38,176 nt of DNA. Origin: Draconibacterium sp. (GTDB taxonomy: Bacteria; Bacteroidota; Bacteroidia; Bacteroidales; Prolixibacteraceae). This document shows positions 17,072-25,556 of the stretch, one piece after another. Made by a program: the position numbers and the translations under genes. Below the pieces are notes generated by a model, which saw only the letters and a program-made list of their open reading frames with translations, made no database searches and was not told the DNA's origin. Numbering within the stretch: position 1 is the stretch's first letter; each line of letters opens with the position of its first letter. The stretch is taken from NCBI GenBank assembly GCA_027011835.1, contig JALUZN010000088.1:1-38176 (forward strand). Reading direction: 5' to 3'.

Positions 17072-18871
17072 ATGAAGAACTTTAAAGAAAAGTCAGATAA
17101 AATATGGGAAGTTGCAAATCTTCTCAGAGGCGATTACAAAAGAGCAGATTATGGAAAAGTAATTTTGCCAATGACAGTGCTAAGGCGTTTGGATTGTGTA
17201 TTAAAACCCACCAAACAAGCCGTACTTGATTACTTGCCAACAGTTGAAAAATTAAAAGAAAGTGCAAAAGACATTGCTTTGAACAAAAAAGCAGGGTTTA
17301 ACTTTCATAACCGAAGTCAATTTGACTTTGATAAATTAATTGCCGACCCAAATAATATTGCAGTAAATCTTAGAAACTTTATTAACGGATTTTCTACAAG
17401 TGCAAGGGAGATAATTGAATATTTCAACTTTGACGACCAAATAGACCGTATGGACGACCCCAAAGCTGATATTCTTTTTCGTGTTGTAAAAGCATTTCAG
17501 GAAATAGACTTATCAGACGATGACCCAATGGTTATGGGGTACATTTTTGAAGACCTGATTAGACGATTCTCTGAACAGTCCAACGAAACAGCAGGAGAAC
17601 ACTTTACACCACGAGAAGTAATTCGTTTGATGGTTAATGTGCTTTTTAACGAAGACAGCGATACCCTGACCAAAGAGGGAATTGTAAAAACAATGTACGA
17701 CCCTGCTTGCGGAACCGGTGGAATGCTTTCGGTTGCAGAGCAGTACTTGAACGAACTAAACACAAAAGCAGAACTTAAAGTTTTCGGACAGGAAATAAAT
17801 CCTGAATCGTATGCAATTTGTAAATCGGATATGCTGATTAAAGGGCAAAATCCTTCCAATGTAAAATTTGGAAATACCTTTACGGTTGACGGATTGGAAG
17901 ATGAAAAATTTGATTATATGCTTTCAAATCCGCCTTTTGGAGTGGACTGGAAAAAAGCACAAAAAATAATAAAAGCCGAACACGAAAACAAAGGAATGCG
18001 TGGGCGTTTTGGTGCAGGACTACCACGAATTAACGATGGTTCGCTACTCTTTTTGCAACATATGATTTCTAAAATGAAACCGGACGGAACACGAATAGGA
18101 ATTGTATTTAATGGTTCGCCTCTTTTTTCAGGTGCTGCCGGTAGCGGAGAAAGCGAAATTAGAAAATGGATTATTGAAAATGATTGGTTGGAAACCATTA
18201 TTGCTCTACCCGACCAACTATTTTACAACACCGGTATTTCAACATACATCTGGATTATTACCAACAACAAAAGTGCTGAACGTAAAGGGAAAGTACAGCT
18301 TATAAATGCCACAGGTGCAAAAGATGAAGAACTTGTGAGCGAAGGTAAGCTCGATAGTAACCGTTTTTGGCGGAAAATGGATAAAAGTTTGGGGAACAAA
18401 CGGAAAAAGATTGTTGAAAACGGAACAGAAAACGGAATTGGTTTTATAACGCAATTGTATGGCAACTTTGAAGAAAATGAATTTTCAAAAATAGTACCTA
18501 ATGAATATTTTGCTTACTGGCGTGTAACCGTAGAACAACCTTTAAAAGATGAAAACGGTGAAATTGTAAAAACCAAAGGCAAGCCCAAAGCAGATACAAG
18601 CTTACGAGATTATGAAAATATCCCATTCCTTAAAAAAGATGAAGAAGGAAACCTTGTACCGCAAACTATTGAAGAATATTTTGAGCGCGAAGTTAAACCA
18701 CATTTGTCTGGTGCCTGGATTGATGAAAAGAAAACCAAGATTGGCTACGAAATAAACTTTACCAAATATTTCTACGAGTTTAAGCCCTTGCGTTCTCTGG
18801 AAGAGATAAAAGCCGATATTTTGGCATTGGAAAAAATGTCAGAATTGGGATTAACCCGATTGTTTGATTAA
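17072..18871 (+). CDS. hsdM: Type I restriction-modification system DNA methyltransferase subunit
   Basis: 599 aa; GEHFTPREVIRLMV, YDPACGTGGMLS, LSNPPFGVDW (N6-adenine MTase). Confidence 0.97.
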   Translation: MKNFKEKSDKIWEVANLLRGDYKRADYGKVILPMTVLRRLDCVLKPTKQAVLDYLPTVEKLKESAKDIALNKKAGFNFHNRSQFDFDKLIADPNNIAVNLRNFINGFSTSAREIIEYFNFDDQIDRMDDPKADILFRVVKAFQEIDLSDDDPMVMGYIFEDLIRRFSEQSNETAGEHFTPREVIRLMVNVLFNEDSDTLTKEGIVKTMYDPACGTGGMLSVAEQYLNELNTKAELKVFGQEINPESYAICKSDMLIKGQNPSNVKFGNTFTVDGLEDEKFDYMLSNPPFGVDWKKAQKIIKAEHENKGMRGRFGAGLPRINDGSLLFLQHMISKMKPDGTRIGIVFNGSPLFSGAAGSGESEIRKWIIENDWLETIIALPDQLFYNTGISTYIWIITNNKSAERKGKVQLINATGAKDEELVSEGKLDSNRFWRKMDKSLGNKRKKIVENGTENGIGFITQLYGNFEENEFSKIVPNEYFAYWRVTVEQPLKDENGEIVKTKGKPKADTSLRDYENIPFLKKDEEGNLVPQTIEEYFEREVKPHLSGAWIDEKKTKIGYEINFTKYFYEFKPLRSLEEIKADILALEKMSELGLTRLFD

Positions 18872-18882
18872 AGGATTACATT

Positions 18883-19326
18883 ATGAGTGAAGAAATAAAA
18901 GATGATTTGACCTATAAAATAATAGGTTGTGCAATGAAAGTTCATAGCACACTTGGTAATGGTTTTCAGAAAGTAATTTATCAACGGGCATTGGCTATTG
19001 AAATGCGAAAACAGGGGATTGAATTTGAACGGGAACTGGAAATGCCTTTGTTTTACGAAGGTTACTCAATAGGAAGCAGGAGAGTTGACTTTTTAGTGGA
19101 AAACAAAGTAATGGTTGAGTTAAAAGCATTGGTTAAATTAGAAGATGTGCATTTGGCACAAGGTTTAAACTACTTGGTTGCCTACAAAGTAGATTTAGGT
19201 CTGTTGTTAAATTTTGGTGCACAAAGCCTTGAAATAAAACGATTAAGACACCCGAAAAACAAACAAAACCCTGCAAAACAAATCCAAAAATCAAATCATC
19301 CGAAAAATCCAAATTCTGACAAATGA
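18883..19326 (+). CDS. GxxExxY family protein (putative PD-(D/E)XK-like)
   Basis: 147 aa; LGNGFQKVIYQRALAIEM…RRVDFLVENKVMVELKALVKL…HLAQGLNYLVAYKVDLGLLLNFG. The namesake Glu is Lys here. Confidence 0.85.
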   Translation: MSEEIKDDLTYKIIGCAMKVHSTLGNGFQKVIYQRALAIEMRKQGIEFERELEMPLFYEGYSIGSRRVDFLVENKVMVELKALVKLEDVHLAQGLNYLVAYKVDLGLLLNFGAQSLEIKRLRHPKNKQNPAKQIQKSNHPKNPNSDK

Positions 19327-20681
19327 GATACGAAAAATATAAAGATTCGGGCATTGAGTGGATTGGGGAAATCCCTGAGCATTGGGACGTAAAAAGATTA
19401 GCTTATGTTATTTCAGATAAATTACAATATGGTGCTAATGAAGTAGCTATTGAAGAAAATATAGAACATCCGAGATACATAAGAATAACCGATTTTGGAG
19501 CAGATGGAAAACTTAAAAAAGACACTTTTAAGTCATTACCTCCTGAAAAAGCTAGTGATTTCATTTTAAATGATGGTGATGTATTATTTGCACGAAGCGG
19601 AGCAACTGTGGGTAAAACATTTCAATTTAAAGATTATAATGGGAAAGCCTGCTTTGCAGGATATTTAATAAAGGCATCACCAAATCCAAGACAAATAATT
19701 TCGGATTTTTTATACCTGTTTACAAAATCAGGCTTATATGAAAATTGGAAAAATAGTATATTCAATCAGGCAACTATTCAAAATATAGGTGCTGATAAAT
19801 ATGCTTTTTTGTCTTTGCCAAAACCTTCAATCATAGAACAAACAGCCATAGCCAACTATCTCGACCGCAAAACAGCCGAGATTGACGAACTCATTGCCGA
19901 CAAAAAACGCCTGCTCGAACTCTACGAAGAAGAAAAAACTGCCATCATCAACCAAGCAGTAACTTGCGGTATAGACGAAAAAGGTCAATTAAGGCAAAAG
20001 CCACAATGCCTGCCAGCCTCTGGCTGGAAAGATAGCGGTATTGAATGGTTAGGGGAAATTCCGGAGCATTGGGAGGTGAAAAGAATTAGACACGTTGCTC
20101 AGATATTCGGGAGAATTGGATATAGAGGATATAAAACAACTGATTTAGTCCCAAAAGGAGAAGGAGCAATAACAATTAGTCCATCAAATATGAAATCATA
20201 TCATATGGAATTTGAAAACTGCACTTATTTGTCTTGGAAAAAATATGAAGAATCACCTGAAATTATGATTCATAATGATGACATTCTTTTTGTTAAAACT
20301 GGTTCAACTTATGGAAAAGTATCCTTTGTCAAAAACCTGCCTGAAAAAGCAACAATAAACCCACAAATCATTGTTCTAAAACAAATTTCTTGCAATAATA
20401 AGTTTTTGTGGTATGTGTTAAAATCTACAAATATTATTTATCAAGTAGAAAGAACAGTTGTTGGAGGTACGATTCCTACTATTTCACAAGCCAAAATTAA
20501 TAACTATGAATTTCCAATACCTTCTAATGAAGAGCAAGCAGTAATTGTTTCATTTATTGATAATGAAAGAAATAGAGTTGATAAAGCAATAAATAAAGCA
20601 AAAAAACTAATTGACTTATTAACCGAATACCGCACCGCTTTAATCAGCGAAGTGGTAACGGGAAAGGTTAAAGTTATATAA
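19323..20681 (+). CDS. hsdS: Type I restriction-modification system specificity subunit
   Basis: 452 aa; two TRD half-repeats (KDSGIEWIGEIPEHWDVKRL and KDSGIEWLGEIPEHWEVKRI) and two conserved helical regions; start overlaps the GxxExxY stop (ATGA). Confidence 0.96.
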   Translation: MRYEKYKDSGIEWIGEIPEHWDVKRLAYVISDKLQYGANEVAIEENIEHPRYIRITDFGADGKLKKDTFKSLPPEKASDFILNDGDVLFARSGATVGKTFQFKDYNGKACFAGYLIKASPNPRQIISDFLYLFTKSGLYENWKNSIFNQATIQNIGADKYAFLSLPKPSIIEQTAIANYLDRKTAEIDELIADKKRLLELYEEEKTAIINQAVTCGIDEKGQLRQKPQCLPASGWKDSGIEWLGEIPEHWEVKRIRHVAQIFGRIGYRGYKTTDLVPKGEGAITISPSNMKSYHMEFENCTYLSWKKYEESPEIMIHNDDILFVKTGSTYGKVSFVKNLPEKATINPQIIVLKQISCNNKFLWYVLKSTNIIYQVERTVVGGTIPTISQAKINNYEFPIPSNEEQAVIVSFIDNERNRVDKAINKAKKLIDLLTEYRTALISEVVTGKVKVI

Positions 20682-20692
20682 ATGCAATATTT

Positions 20693-20725
20693 TTTGCTTT
20701 TATATGTTTTTATTCTGTATATTTG
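20693..20725 (+). promoter_or_regulatory. Predicted Bacteroidota-type promoter for the rloA-rloB-hsdR unit
   Basis: TTTG (20693-20696) - 21 nt - TATATTTG (20718-20725), matching TTTG-N(19-21)-TAnnTTTG; start codon at 20754. Confidence 0.6.
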
Positions 20726-20753
20726 AAAACTTTTTACAAAAACAGGACTTAAA

Positions 20754-22022
20754 ATGATATTAGAGATACGTTTAAGTAATTTTTACTCAATTAAAGATGA
20801 AGTGGTTCTTGATATGCGTGCAGCAAATATTAAGAGTAAAAACGCCAAAGCACTTTCCGATAATGTTTTTTCGTTTGACGATACCGAAATACTAAAAACG
20901 GTAACTATTTACGGGGCAAATGCCTCAGGGAAAAGCAATATTATAAAAGCCATTCGCTTTTGTAGTATGATGATTCTGCATTCAGCAAATTACAATGAAA
21001 ATACAATTTTTCCGTATCGTAAATTCAAATTTGCCAATTTCGAAAAAAAGCCCAGCACTTTTTTTATCAATTTTGTGGTTGATGGTATAGAATATGAGTA
21101 TGGCTTTTCTTTAATGCAGGATAAAATTCTTACAGAAACTTTAAATTACTATCCCAAAGGAAGAATTAAGAAGATATTTGCACGAGACGAAAAGGCAGGC
21201 AAAACAAAAAAGGAAAAATACAGTTTCGGGTCGGAAATAAAACGCCCCTTAGATGTTGCAGCAAATACTTCTGCTAAAACTCTGTACCTGTCGCGTGCCA
21301 GCCAAATGGACAGAGATATTGCCAAAGAACTGTTTATGTATTTTAATAGCACTTTTATTTTGGCATATCTGGGGCATAATGCCAGTCAGGTTGATATATT
21401 ATTCAAAACCTACAAAACACATTTGCTAAAAGCATTACAAATAGCCGATAGCGACATTGTAAATATTACCGTAAAAAAAATCAAAACACAAGGTAAATCG
21501 CTAAATGTTAGTTTTACAGGAACAGAATTAAAAGAAGCAAGAGTAGAAGATTCGATACAAGAACAGTTGCAAATAAAAACTTTTCATAAAACAGACCCCT
21601 CAAAAAGTTTCGATTTGTTTGCCGAAGAATCGGAAGGCACAAAAAAACTGTTTGTCATAATGTTAAGTGTTCTTGATATTATTGCTAATGATAAAATTCT
21701 TTTAGTGGACGAAATTGGAGAAAGCCTGCATACCGATATTATTGAGTATATTTTTAACCTGTTTAGGGCAAGTAATAAAGCTCAATTGATTTGCACAACT
21801 CACAATACCCGCTTTCTGGATTTAACAAAGTTCCGTAAAGACCAGTTTTATTTTGTTAATAAAAAAGAAGATGCTTCTTCTGATTTATATTCTCTATATG
21901 ATTATAGTGACTTTCGTGACACAATGGACTTGGAAAAAGCCTATTTACAAGGTCGGTTTGATGCCATTCCTTTTGTAAACGATTCTATCGAAAACTTAAA
22001 ACAGTTAATAGATGGCGAGTAG
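20754..22022 (+). CDS. rloA: AAA ATPase, RloA/AbiLii-like (SMC-type/OLD-like fold)
   Basis: 422 aa; N-terminal LEIRLSNFYSIKDEVVLDMRA, Walker A GANASGKSN, Walker B-like KILLVDEIGESLHTDIIEYIFNLF, LICTTHNTRFLDL. Confidence 0.85.
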   Translation: MILEIRLSNFYSIKDEVVLDMRAANIKSKNAKALSDNVFSFDDTEILKTVTIYGANASGKSNIIKAIRFCSMMILHSANYNENTIFPYRKFKFANFEKKPSTFFINFVVDGIEYEYGFSLMQDKILTETLNYYPKGRIKKIFARDEKAGKTKKEKYSFGSEIKRPLDVAANTSAKTLYLSRASQMDRDIAKELFMYFNSTFILAYLGHNASQVDILFKTYKTHLLKALQIADSDIVNITVKKIKTQGKSLNVSFTGTELKEARVEDSIQEQLQIKTFHKTDPSKSFDLFAEESEGTKKLFVIMLSVLDIIANDKILLVDEIGESLHTDIIEYIFNLFRASNKAQLICTTHNTRFLDLTKFRKDQFYFVNKKEDASSDLYSLYDYSDFRDTMDLEKAYLQGRFDAIPFVNDSIENLKQLIDGE

Positions 22023-22572
22023 AAGCAGAAAAGCATCAAAAGGGAAAAAGATTAATCCTAAATTTTGGGTGTTTTGTGAAGGTAAAACAGAAAAGGCTTA
22101 TGTTGAATATTTAAGAGCCAAATATCGCTTACCGGTAAAAATTATCCCTAAAATAACAGGACAGGACATTGATGAAAGAACAATAGAAAGTCATATTAGC
22201 GAAAAGGAGAAGCACGATAAAGATAAAATATATTTACTTTACGATGCTGATGTTATAGAAGTTTTAGAACGATTGAAACAAATAAAAAGTGCAAAATTAT
22301 TGGCGTCTAATCCAACCATAGAATTATGGTTTCTGTTACATTATAAAAATCAAACAGCAAATATTTCAGAAGAAGAATGTATTAGGCAATTAAGTAACAG
22401 AAATAATAACAAATATAAAAAAGGATTGATTGATGAAAAATTAGGAATACGTTTGAGTAATAAGCAGAATGAAGCCTGCAACAGAGCTAAGCAAACTGAT
22501 TTATATAATAATCCGAGTTCGAATATTTATCAATTTATTGAAGAATTGGAGAACGCAAAGAAAGATAAATGA
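22012..22572 (+). CDS. rloB: RloB-like protein with Toprim-type motifs
   Basis: 186 aa; FWVFCEGKTEKAYVEYL (acidic E motif), IYLLYDADV (DxD motif), SNPTIELWFLLHY (RloB-type motif). Confidence 0.82.
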   Translation: MASRSRKASKGKKINPKFWVFCEGKTEKAYVEYLRAKYRLPVKIIPKITGQDIDERTIESHISEKEKHDKDKIYLLYDADVIEVLERLKQIKSAKLLASNPTIELWFLLHYKNQTANISEEECIRQLSNRNNNKYKKGLIDEKLGIRLSNKQNEACNRAKQTDLYNNPSSNIYQFIEELENAKKDK

Positions 22573-25556
22573 AGATTATCACCGAAAATACATTTGAAAC
22601 AGCCCTTGTACAATCTCTTGTAGAGCAAGGCGGATACACACAAGGAAATGCAGAGGATTACAGCAAAGAACTTGGAATGTTTAAATATGAGGTTATTGCA
22701 TTCTTGCAAGAATCGCAACCTAAAAAATGGGAAAAGATTTCTGCCATTCACGGAGCAGATGCAGACAACCGAATTATTCAGCGTTTGTGCAAAGAACTCG
22801 ATTTAAGAGGCAGTTTAGATGTACTAAGAAATGGTTTTGTAGATTATGGCGTTCGTTTTCAGTTGGCCTATTTTCAGCCAGCTTCGGGGCTTAATCCTGA
22901 TGCAGTTGATTTATACAACAAAAACAGTCTGAAAGTTTATCGACAGGTTTATTACAGCAAAAAGAATAAAAACTCGGTTGATGTTGTTTTGGCGATTAAT
23001 GGAATACCTGTTGCTACCTTAGAATTAAAAAATCAATTTACCGGGCAAAATGTAGGTAACGCTTTAAAACAATACAGCACAACGAGAGACAACAAAGAGT
23101 TGCTTTTTGCTTTCAAAAAAAGAACTTTGGTACATTTTGCCGTTGACCAGGACGAAGTTTTTATGACCACAAAATTAGATGGAAGTAAAACTTATTGGTT
23201 GCCGTTTAACAAAGGCAATAACAACGGAAAAGGAAATCCGCCTAACCCTGATGGTTACAGAACAGCTTATTTGTGGGAATATATCTTACAAAAAGACAGT
23301 TGGATGGATATTGTAAAACAATTTATCCATTTGCAAACAGAAGAAATTGAAACACAGGGAAAGATTTACAAACGAGAAAAACTAATTTTCCCACGCTACC
23401 ACCAATTAGACGCAGTTCGAAAAATTAGTAATAATGTTTTGAAAGTTGAAGCAGGAACAAACTATCTGATTCAACATTCGGCAGGTTCGGGCAAAAGTAA
23501 CTCTATTGCCTGGTTGGCATACCGACTTTCGAGTTTGCATAATGCACAAGACAACAGAATTTTTGATTCGGTAATTGTTGTTACCGACAGGAGAGTACTC
23601 GACCAACAATTGCAAAATACAATTTATCAATTTGAACATAAAACAGGTGTTGTTCAGCGGATAGACAAAGACAGTACACAATTAGCAAATGCTTTGGGAT
23701 ATGGTACAAATATCATTATAACTACTTTACAGAAGTTCCCGTTTGTTGTTGACAAAGTTGGTGACTTGCCAGACAGAAATTATGCAGTAATTATTGACGA
23801 AGCTCATAGTTCGCAAGGTGGCGAAGCCAGTAAAAAAATGAAAGAAGTTTTGGCAGCTAAGTCATTAGAAGAAGCCGTAACCGAAGAAACACAGGACGAC
23901 TACACAGGCGATGATTTTGTAAGAGAACAAATAGAGCGTTCAGCACAGGCAAGAGGTCAACAAAGCAATATTTCGTTTTTTGCATTTACCGCAACACCAA
24001 AGTATAAAACATTACAGGTTTTTGGTCATAAAGATGCCAAAGGTAAACCAAAACCGTTTCACCTTTATTCAATGCGTCAGGCAATCGAGGAAGGATTTAT
24101 ATTAGATGTTTTACAAAATTACACCACATACGAGCTTTATTTCAAATTAACAAAAGCCATTGAAGACGACCCCAATTTAAATAAAAAGAAAGCAGCAAAA
24201 GCTATTGGCAAATTTGTTTCGTTGCACCCACACAATTTAGCCCAAAAAACAGAAATAATAATAGAACATTTCAGGCAAATTGTTGCTAAAAAAATTGGAG
24301 GTAAAGCCAAAGCAATGTTGGTTTGTGGTTCAAGACTGCACGCCAAACGCTATTTTGAAGAATTTAATAAATACATAAAAGAAAAAGGCTATCAAACCGA
24401 TATAAAAATACTCGTAGCATTTTCGGGAAAGGTAATAGATGATAACTTTCCTGATGGAGTTTCTGAACCGCAAATGACAGGGTACAGCGAAAAGGAACTG
24501 CCTGACATTTTTGATAAAGACGAATACAAAATCTTAATTGTAGCCGATAAATATCAAACAGGTTTTGACCAACCTTTGTTACAAACAATGTATGTTGATA
24601 AAAAGCTATCGGGTGTAAAAGCAGTTCAAACACTTTCACGCTTAAACAGAACTTGTGCAGGTAAAGAAGATACATTTGTTTTGGATTTTGTAAACGACAG
24701 GGAAACCATTTTCGCCTCGTTTCAGCCTTATTATGAAATCACAACAGTTACAGAAGAAACAGATGTAAACCATTTGTACGATTTAAAAGCAAGACTTGAT
24801 GAGTTTCAGATTTATTGGGAAACAGAAATAAACGAATTTGCAAATGTTTATTTTAATCCTGATACAAAATTGAATAACCCGAAACAACAAAAATATCTTT
24901 ATTCATTTACCGACCCTGCTGTTGATAGATTTAAGGAAATAAAGGAAGAAGAAAAACAAGACGAGTTTAAAAAAGGTTTGCGTACTTGGACTAATCTTTA
25001 CGCTTTCTTAGCTCAAATTATGCCATTTGTTGACCCTGAATTTGAGAAGTTTTATGCCTATGCAAAACTATTACAAACAAGATTACCCAAAAGAGAACTT
25101 TCTGAAAGTTTGCATTTAGACGATGAAGTCGCATTGGAATATTATCGTTTACAAAAAATAAAAGAAGGTTCAATTGATTTACTTAAAGGAGAGGCAGGGG
25201 AATTAAGCGGAACAACAGAGGCAGGGCTAAAACGGGCAAAAGATGAAGAAGCTTTGCTTTCTGAAATTATCAATGTTTTAAATGACCGTTTCGGAACTGA
25301 ATTTGAAGAAGCAGACCGTTTGTTTTTTGAATCAATTGAAGCGGAATTAATGGAAGATGAAACACTGCAAAAACAGGCGAAAGTTAATAAGATTGATACC
25401 TTCAAATATGCCTTTGAGGACTTGTTCATTACAAAATTGATTGACAGAATGGATATGAATCAAGAAATATTTGAAAAAATACTCGAAGACAAAGTATTTG
25501 GAGACTTAGTAAAAGAACTAATGATGAAAAAAGTATATAAGAAAATGAACGAATAG
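22569..25556 (+). CDS. hsdR: Type I restriction-modification system endonuclease/translocase subunit
   Basis: 995 aa; nuclease motif VDVVLAINGIPVATLELKNQ, Walker A HSAGSGKSNSIAWLAY, VIIDEAHSSQGG, FFAFTATPK, QTLSRLNRT. Start overlaps the rloB stop (ATGA). Confidence 0.97.
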   Translation: MKIITENTFETALVQSLVEQGGYTQGNAEDYSKELGMFKYEVIAFLQESQPKKWEKISAIHGADADNRIIQRLCKELDLRGSLDVLRNGFVDYGVRFQLAYFQPASGLNPDAVDLYNKNSLKVYRQVYYSKKNKNSVDVVLAINGIPVATLELKNQFTGQNVGNALKQYSTTRDNKELLFAFKKRTLVHFAVDQDEVFMTTKLDGSKTYWLPFNKGNNNGKGNPPNPDGYRTAYLWEYILQKDSWMDIVKQFIHLQTEEIETQGKIYKREKLIFPRYHQLDAVRKISNNVLKVEAGTNYLIQHSAGSGKSNSIAWLAYRLSSLHNAQDNRIFDSVIVVTDRRVLDQQLQNTIYQFEHKTGVVQRIDKDSTQLANALGYGTNIIITTLQKFPFVVDKVGDLPDRNYAVIIDEAHSSQGGEASKKMKEVLAAKSLEEAVTEETQDDYTGDDFVREQIERSAQARGQQSNISFFAFTATPKYKTLQVFGHKDAKGKPKPFHLYSMRQAIEEGFILDVLQNYTTYELYFKLTKAIEDDPNLNKKKAAKAIGKFVSLHPHNLAQKTEIIIEHFRQIVAKKIGGKAKAMLVCGSRLHAKRYFEEFNKYIKEKGYQTDIKILVAFSGKVIDDNFPDGVSEPQMTGYSEKELPDIFDKDEYKILIVADKYQTGFDQPLLQTMYVDKKLSGVKAVQTLSRLNRTCAGKEDTFVLDFVNDRETIFASFQPYYEITTVTEETDVNHLYDLKARLDEFQIYWETEINEFANVYFNPDTKLNNPKQQKYLYSFTDPAVDRFKEIKEEEKQDEFKKGLRTWTNLYAFLAQIMPFVDPEFEKFYAYAKLLQTRLPKRELSESLHLDDEVALEYYRLQKIKEGSIDLLKGEAGELSGTTEAGLKRAKDEEALLSEIINVLNDRFGTEFEEADRLFFESIEAELMEDETLQKQAKVNKIDTFKYAFEDLFITKLIDRMDMNQEIFEKILEDKVFGDLVKELMMKKVYKKMNE

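What the first reader, a model, noticed from the sequence alone, without database searches (positions are those of the whole stretch)
22012..22572. RloB-like protein carries Toprim-type E and DxD motifs: candidate nuclease effector
FWVFCEGKTEKAYVEYL followed by IYLLYDADV has the acidic spacing expected for a Toprim fold (Glu in motif 1, DxD in motif 2), as in OLD nucleases and PARIS AriB. With the OLD/SMC-like ATPase upstream this predicts an ATPase-controlled nuclease. Substrate (tRNA, DNA, other) cannot be inferred from sequence.
Basis: partly seen in the sequence, partly recalled or inferred. Interest (0 to 1): 0.65.

Follow-up and report, generated by a model that had tools for sequence, protein, structure and literature searches.

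The report
AbiL-type Toprim nuclease with ATPase partner
The gene encodes the likely toxic nuclease half of a known two-gene anti-phage suicide module (AbiL/RloAB), here tucked inside a DNA restriction operon at a spot where related bacteria carry other defence or toxin genes.

Summary
The 186-aa ORF at 22012-22572 is real. It is a Pfam RloB protein (9e-24) and a PADLOC AbiLii protein. The ATPase ORF upstream (20754-22022), overlapping it by 11 nt, is AbiLi (4e-80). The pair is an AbiL/RloAB module placed between hsdS and hsdR of a type I restriction operon. E27, S99, E104, W106, H110, Y135 and K137 are as conserved, so the site resembles the two-metal site of OLD nucleases. A profile comparison with OLD Toprim domains puts EGxTE and DxD in register (score 31.4; 60 shuffled controls at most 15.5). 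A confident model (pLDDT 90) has Toprim element order, but Foldseek found no significant Toprim structure. All 46 loci checked have the ATPase directly upstream. The relation of RloB to OLD Toprim, and AbiLii as toxic effector, are already published: a new member of a known kind. By-product: the hsdS-hsdR gap of this restriction family is a variable cargo slot (Septu, Fic, PIN-toxin, Schlafen-type, NucC-like genes in relatives). The substrate (tRNA, other RNA or DNA) remains open.

The parts
22012..22572 (+). rloB / abiLii: 186-aa RloB-family (PF13707) protein with Toprim-type active site (E23, E27, D78, D80, S99, E104, K137); predicted nuclease effector
22078..22092 (+). codons for E23-G-K-T-E27 (Toprim Glu motif)
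   Evidence: translation; conservation
22243..22251 (+). codons for D78-A-D80 (Toprim DxD motif)
   Evidence: translation; conservation
22306..22341 (+). codons for S99-NPTI-E104-L-W106-FLL-H110, RloB signature after strand 4; E104 is the candidate second-metal ligand
   Evidence: compared with E508 of B. pseudomallei OLD (PMC6755086)
20754..22022 (+). rloA / abiLi: 422-aa AAA_21 ABC/OLD-type ATPase (Walker A GANASGKSN, Walker B ILLVDE); overlaps rloB by 11 nt
17072..18871 (+). hsdM, type I methyltransferase subunit of the host operon
18883..19326 (+). GxxExxY protein (PF13366 PD-(D/E)XK family), between hsdM and hsdS
19323..20681 (+). hsdS, type I specificity subunit
22569..25556 (+). hsdR, type I restriction subunit; overlaps rloB by 4 nt

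Best explanation
The two overlapping genes 20754-22022 and 22012-22572 are an AbiL (RloA-RloB) abortive-infection module. RloA is an OLD/AriA-type ABC ATPase that most likely assembles with RloB, keeps it inactive and senses infection. RloB is a stand-alone Toprim, two-metal nuclease that is set free or switched on by RloA and damages the cell (RNA, most plausibly tRNA, is the best guess), stopping the infection at the cost of growth. Shown here: family, pairing, conserved acidic site, Toprim-like order of the model, remote homology to OLD Toprim, position in a type I RM operon. Inferred: nuclease activity, gating by RloA, trigger and substrate.
For: Family matches: RloB 9e-24, AbiLii 1.6e-22, AbiLi 4e-80, AriA 3e-30. 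The ATPase is 27% identical over its length (3e-30) to the first of the two genes annotated 'abortive phage resistance protein' in Lactococcus prophage proPhi7. rloA lies directly upstream on the same strand in 46/46 loci, almost always overlapping or adjacent. E23, E27, D78, D80, S99, E104, H110 and K137 are 97-100% conserved in 69 sequences. The MSA-based model has pLDDT 89.8, pTM 0.83, order b-E23-a-b-a-b-DxD-a-b-helix(E104). hhalign to OLD-like Toprim domains scores 31.4 with EGxTE and DxD in register; maximum of 60 column-shuffled controls 15.5, reversed control 12.5, response-regulator control 17.3. B. pseudomallei OLD uses E400, E404, D455, D457, T506, E508 for two metals (PMC6755086). 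PMC10440598 reports RloB as OLD_TOPRIM-related by HHpred and includes a TOPRIM_OLD(D44):AAA pair among its toxicity-neutralisation assays; PMC3985639 reports AbiLii of Fusobacterium nucleatum toxic in E. coli.
Against: Foldseek against PDB gives no match at E<=0.001 and no Toprim in the top 50. In the viral library, beyond an RloB-like protein, DnaG Toprim domains appear only at non-significant E-values. L. lactis AbiLii was not toxic in E. coli, and AbiLi did not neutralise F. nucleatum AbiLii (PMC3985639), so gating by RloA is not settled. Profile comparison with DUF4435 (AriB) members was weak, with only four sequences available.
Confidence: 0.8

Rival explanations
1. RM guardian: RloAB is functionally tied to the type I RM enzyme of its operon, as PrrC is to EcoprrI or PARIS to anti-restriction proteins; it fires when a phage protein inhibits the restriction enzyme.
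For: Embedded between hsdS and hsdR with 11-nt and 4-nt gene overlaps. The rloB-hsdR adjacency recurs in G009 (L134, 4-nt overlap) and G291 (L136). Precedents PrrC and PARIS are reviewed in PMC12707154. In related RM operons the same slot holds Septu, Fic, PIN-toxin or NucC-like genes.
Against: The closest RloAB relatives (L001-L004, 49-64% identity) show no RM genes in the sequence held. Of 46 loci only 7 had any match to the window's Hsd proteins, some of them weak, and only G009 and G291 have hsdR directly downstream. G291's HsdR is a distant one although its RloA is close, so the pair moves independently of the RM enzyme.
Confidence: 0.2
2. DNA-cutting effector: RloB, like OLD, GajA and Retron-Eco8 nucleases, degrades or nicks DNA rather than RNA.
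For: The best profile match is to OLD-like Toprims, whose studied members cut DNA (PMC6755086), and the residue set matches the two-metal OLD site.
Against: The two-gene split architecture is that of PARIS, whose Toprim AriB cuts tRNA (PMC12409363). Fold class does not fix the substrate.
Confidence: 0.3
3. RloB is not a nuclease: the acidic residues bind metal for another purpose, or the copy is inactive cargo.
For: No nuclease assay of an RloB protein was found in the papers read; the invariant W106, H110 and Y135 have no counterpart that I could point to in OLD.
Against: The full set of Toprim metal ligands is kept in the window protein and in nearly all homologues; AbiLii of F. nucleatum is toxic (PMC3985639).
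Confidence: 0.08

Closest known systems
AbiL of Lactococcus lactis (AbiLi + AbiLii), PADLOC AbiLi/AbiLii
   Same: Same two families in the same order, adjacent genes, same key residues; the prophage proPhi7 pair aligns along its length
   Different: 27-28% identity; chromosomal contig and inside a type I RM operon rather than on a plasmid or prophage; from Bacteroidota
RloA/RloB, the 'restriction-linked' ORFs of type I RM operons
   Same: Same Pfam family (RloB) and same kind of place; PMC10440598 cites RloB in type I RM operons
   Different: Campylobacter sequences were not compared here
PARIS (AriA + AriB)
   Same: Split ATPase + Toprim architecture; RloA matches AriA models (3e-30)
   Different: Effector belongs to RloB, not DUF4435; trigger and tRNA target untested
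OLD / Gabija GajA / Retron-Eco8 nucleases
   Same: ATPase plus Toprim, same set of metal ligands, profile similarity far above shuffled controls
   Different: Those are single-chain ATPase-Toprim proteins; RloB is a separate 186-aa protein with its own SNPxxExWxLLH signature
PrrC in EcoprrI
   Same: Effector gene embedded in a type I RM operon (PMC3874165)
   Different: PrrC is a single anticodon nuclease protein; no homology claimed

Membership tests
AbiL (PADLOC) | AbiLii/RloB-family effector | tested here: met
   PDLC02337 1.6e-22; PF13707 9.1e-24, over its cut-off
AbiL (PADLOC) | Adjacent AbiLi ATPase | tested here: met
   PDLC02335 4e-80, 11-nt overlap
AbiL (PADLOC) | Abortive phage defence | not testable with these tools
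   needs phage challenge
Toprim superfamily | Conserved Glu after strand 1 and DxD after strand 3 | tested here: met
   E23 68/69, D78 69/69, D80 68/69; positions in model
Toprim superfamily | Invariant Gly following strand 2 | tested here: inconclusive
   G50 in 36 of 69, aligned with S or T in others; the alignment is loose there
Toprim superfamily | Toprim fold in a structure comparison | tested here: inconclusive
   Element order matches in a confident model; Foldseek PDB gave no significant hit
OLD family nuclease | Homology of the Toprim part to OLD Toprim | tested here: met
   hhalign score 31.4 vs shuffled maximum 15.5
OLD family nuclease | ATPase and Toprim in one chain (classes 1-3) | tested here: not met
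   two separate genes
PARIS | AriB (DUF4435) effector | tested here: not met
   no DUF4435 match in Pfam scan; profile comparison weak
PARIS | Response to anti-restriction protein, tRNA-Lys cleavage | not testable with these tools
   needs experiment
Type I RM-linked guardian (PrrC-like) | Gene embedded in hsd operon | tested here: met
   hsdM-GxxExxY-hsdS-rloA-rloB-hsdR
Type I RM-linked guardian (PrrC-like) | Activity coupled to the RM enzyme | not testable with these tools
   needs experiment; linkage is loose across the family

The most novel reading that the evidence does not exclude
In this type I RM family the interval between hsdS and hsdR is a dedicated swap-in slot for suicide effectors (RloAB here and beside hsdR in G009; Septu, Fic, PIN toxins, Schlafen-type or NucC-like nucleases in relatives), each acting as an RM guardian that fires when restriction is inhibited.
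Probability: 0.2. Interest if true: 0.6.

Novelty: new member of a known kind. Interest (0 to 1): 0.3.

Why it matters
RloB/AbiLii is widespread (67 of 396 sampled genomes of the phylum) and is annotated only as 'RloB-like'. The residue set and the OLD link give a precise mutational test (E23, E27, D78, D80, S99, E104, H110, K137) of whether the family is a two-metal nuclease. The variable slot between hsdS and hsdR is a concrete place to look for RM guardians: 14 of 16 relatives with both genes visible carry an insert.

Tried and rejected
A single-sequence structure prediction was useless (pLDDT 46) and was replaced by the MSA-based model. Sequence searches of PDB with RloB, its profile and RloA gave no relatives. 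Comparison with RecR-type Toprim_4 and DUF3226 domains gave nothing usable, although the weak Pfam DUF3226 hit (0.026) covers the same EG and DxD region. Obligate partnership with the RM enzyme was rejected because the nearest RloAB relatives show no RM genes nearby. Membership in PARIS was rejected on the effector family. Literature searches for 'RloB' and 'AbiLii' returned few relevant papers.

Full report
What is there. It is a Pfam RloB protein (PF13707, 9.1e-24, covering residues 19-179) and a PADLOC AbiLii protein (1.6e-22). The ORF before it, 20754-22022, overlaps it by 11 nt and is an AAA_21 ATPase (2e-33) that PADLOC calls AbiLi (4e-80) and, less well, AriA (3e-30). The next ORF, 22569-25556, overlaps rloB by 4 nt and is HsdR. 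The operon reads hsdM (17072), GxxExxY (18883), hsdS (19323), rloA, rloB, hsdR.

Conservation. Homologues were taken from whole genomes of the same phylum (67 of 396 sampled have PF13707), from genome contigs and from viral contigs. In 69 aligned sequences E23 is kept in 68, G24 in 69, T26 in 67, E27 in 68, Y30 in 69, D78 in 69, D80 in 68, S99 in 67, E104 in 69, W106 in 69, H110 in 69, Y135 in 69 and K137 in 98.6%. The acidic residues are thus the core of the family and not a chance motif. The Gly that Toprim domains keep after strand 2 is less firm (G50 in 36 of 69).

Fold. Without an alignment the model was poor. With 39 aligned sequences it is confident (pLDDT 89.8, pTM 0.83): strand 18-22 followed by E23, helix 25-38, strand 42-45, helix 55-63, strand 72-78 ending at D78, helix 82-89, strand 95-100, then a helix 103-108 holding E104. 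That is the order of a Toprim domain with the motifs in the expected places. The independent structural test is weaker: Foldseek found no significant PDB match, and in the viral library a single significant match, another RloB-like protein (TM-score 0.74, E 4e-8), with DnaG Toprim domains only among non-significant matches.

Link to OLD nucleases. I built a profile of OLD-like Toprim domains from 18 genomic members of PF20469 and aligned it to the RloB profile. The alignment covers 86 columns, puts EG.TE on EG.TE and DxD on DxD, and scores 31.4 (P 5.5e-4). Sixty column-shuffled versions of the OLD alignment reach at most 15.5, the reversed one 12.5, and a response-regulator alignment 17.3. In B. 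pseudomallei OLD the metals are held by E400, E404, D455, D457, T506 and E508, with K562 also important (PMC6755086). RloB offers E23, E27, D78, D80, S99, E104 and K137. The matching of S99, E104 and K137 is by order and conservation only, not by superposition.

Pairing. In 46 of 46 loci examined the ATPase lies directly upstream of rloB on the same strand. A Lactococcus prophage carries the same pair, annotated as abortive phage resistance proteins; its ATPase aligns with RloA along its length (3e-30), and PADLOC calls them AbiLi and AbiLii. An E. faecium conjugative plasmid has the pair too.

The restriction operon. RloAB is not bound to RM systems. The nearest relatives (L001-L004) show no hsd genes in the sequence held, and only G009 and G291 have hsdR directly downstream. 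Looked at from the other side, relatives of the window's HsdR (47-88% identity in those examined) were fetched with their upstream genes. Of 16 with both hsdS and hsdR visible, 14 have one or more other ORFs between them, and none of these is rloAB. The inserts include Septu PtuA-PtuB (L255, L258), a Fic protein (L253), a DUF6602 protein resembling NucC (L249), a DUF433-PIN pair (L251), an ImmA-like protein with DUF4411 (L263), and Schlafen AlbA_2 proteins (L257, L259, L260: the first identified in L256, the others nearly the same by their N-termini); L247, where hsdS is not visible, has SoFic. So this gap is a cargo slot, and rloAB is one of its occupants. The general idea of RM-coupled accessory toxins and guardians is in the literature (PMC12707154; PrrC in PMC3874165).

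What it does. The best-supported account is an AbiL abortive-infection module: ATPase sensor and holder, Toprim nuclease effector. Steps shown here are family, pairing, site and remote homology. Steps taken from relatives are toxicity (F. nucleatum AbiLii, PMC3985639), inclusion of a TOPRIM_OLD:AAA pair in toxicity-neutralisation assays (PMC10440598), and release of the effector from an ATPase assembly (PARIS, PMC12409363). Inferred steps are nuclease activity of this protein, its target and its trigger. In one test AbiLi did not neutralise AbiLii, so the holding role is not secure.

Verdict. It is also already known: PMC10440598 (2023) states that RloB is related to OLD_TOPRIM domains and treats AbiLii as a TOPRIM toxic effector, and PMC12409363 lists AbiL among ATPase-Toprim systems. 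I file it as a new member of a known kind with modest interest; the fuller predicted active site and the cargo slot are the useful additions.

Noticed in passing
window 19323-25556 and L246-L265: The interval between hsdS and hsdR in relatives of this type I RM system is a variable cargo slot: 14 of 16 with both genes visible carry other genes there (Septu, Fic, PIN toxins, NucC-like, Schlafen-type), none of them rloAB.
   Followed up: partly
window 18883-19326: A GxxExxY protein (PD-(D/E)XK_3 family) sits between hsdM and hsdS, overlapping hsdS by 4 nt; the closest RM relative (L246) keeps it. Role unknown.
   Followed up: no
L136 5312-8495 (G291): A close RloAB pair follows a SIR2_2-domain gene and precedes a distant hsdR, another defence-rich arrangement.
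   Followed up: no
L134 1196-3562 (G009): RloAB preceded by a Fic-domain gene and followed by a 60%-identical HsdR, with no Methylase_S match found in that genome.
   Followed up: no
L246 3095-3748 (-): The insert between hsdS and hsdR looks by eye like a REP-associated tyrosine transposase (WWDYGWNGAYFITICT), with no Pfam match; possible means of gene movement.
   Followed up: no
window 22306-22341 (RloB residues 99-110) and all homologues: Family-specific signature SNPxxExWxLLH with invariant W106 and H110, which I could not match to OLD catalytic residues; candidate substrate-binding or catalytic elements.
   Followed up: partly
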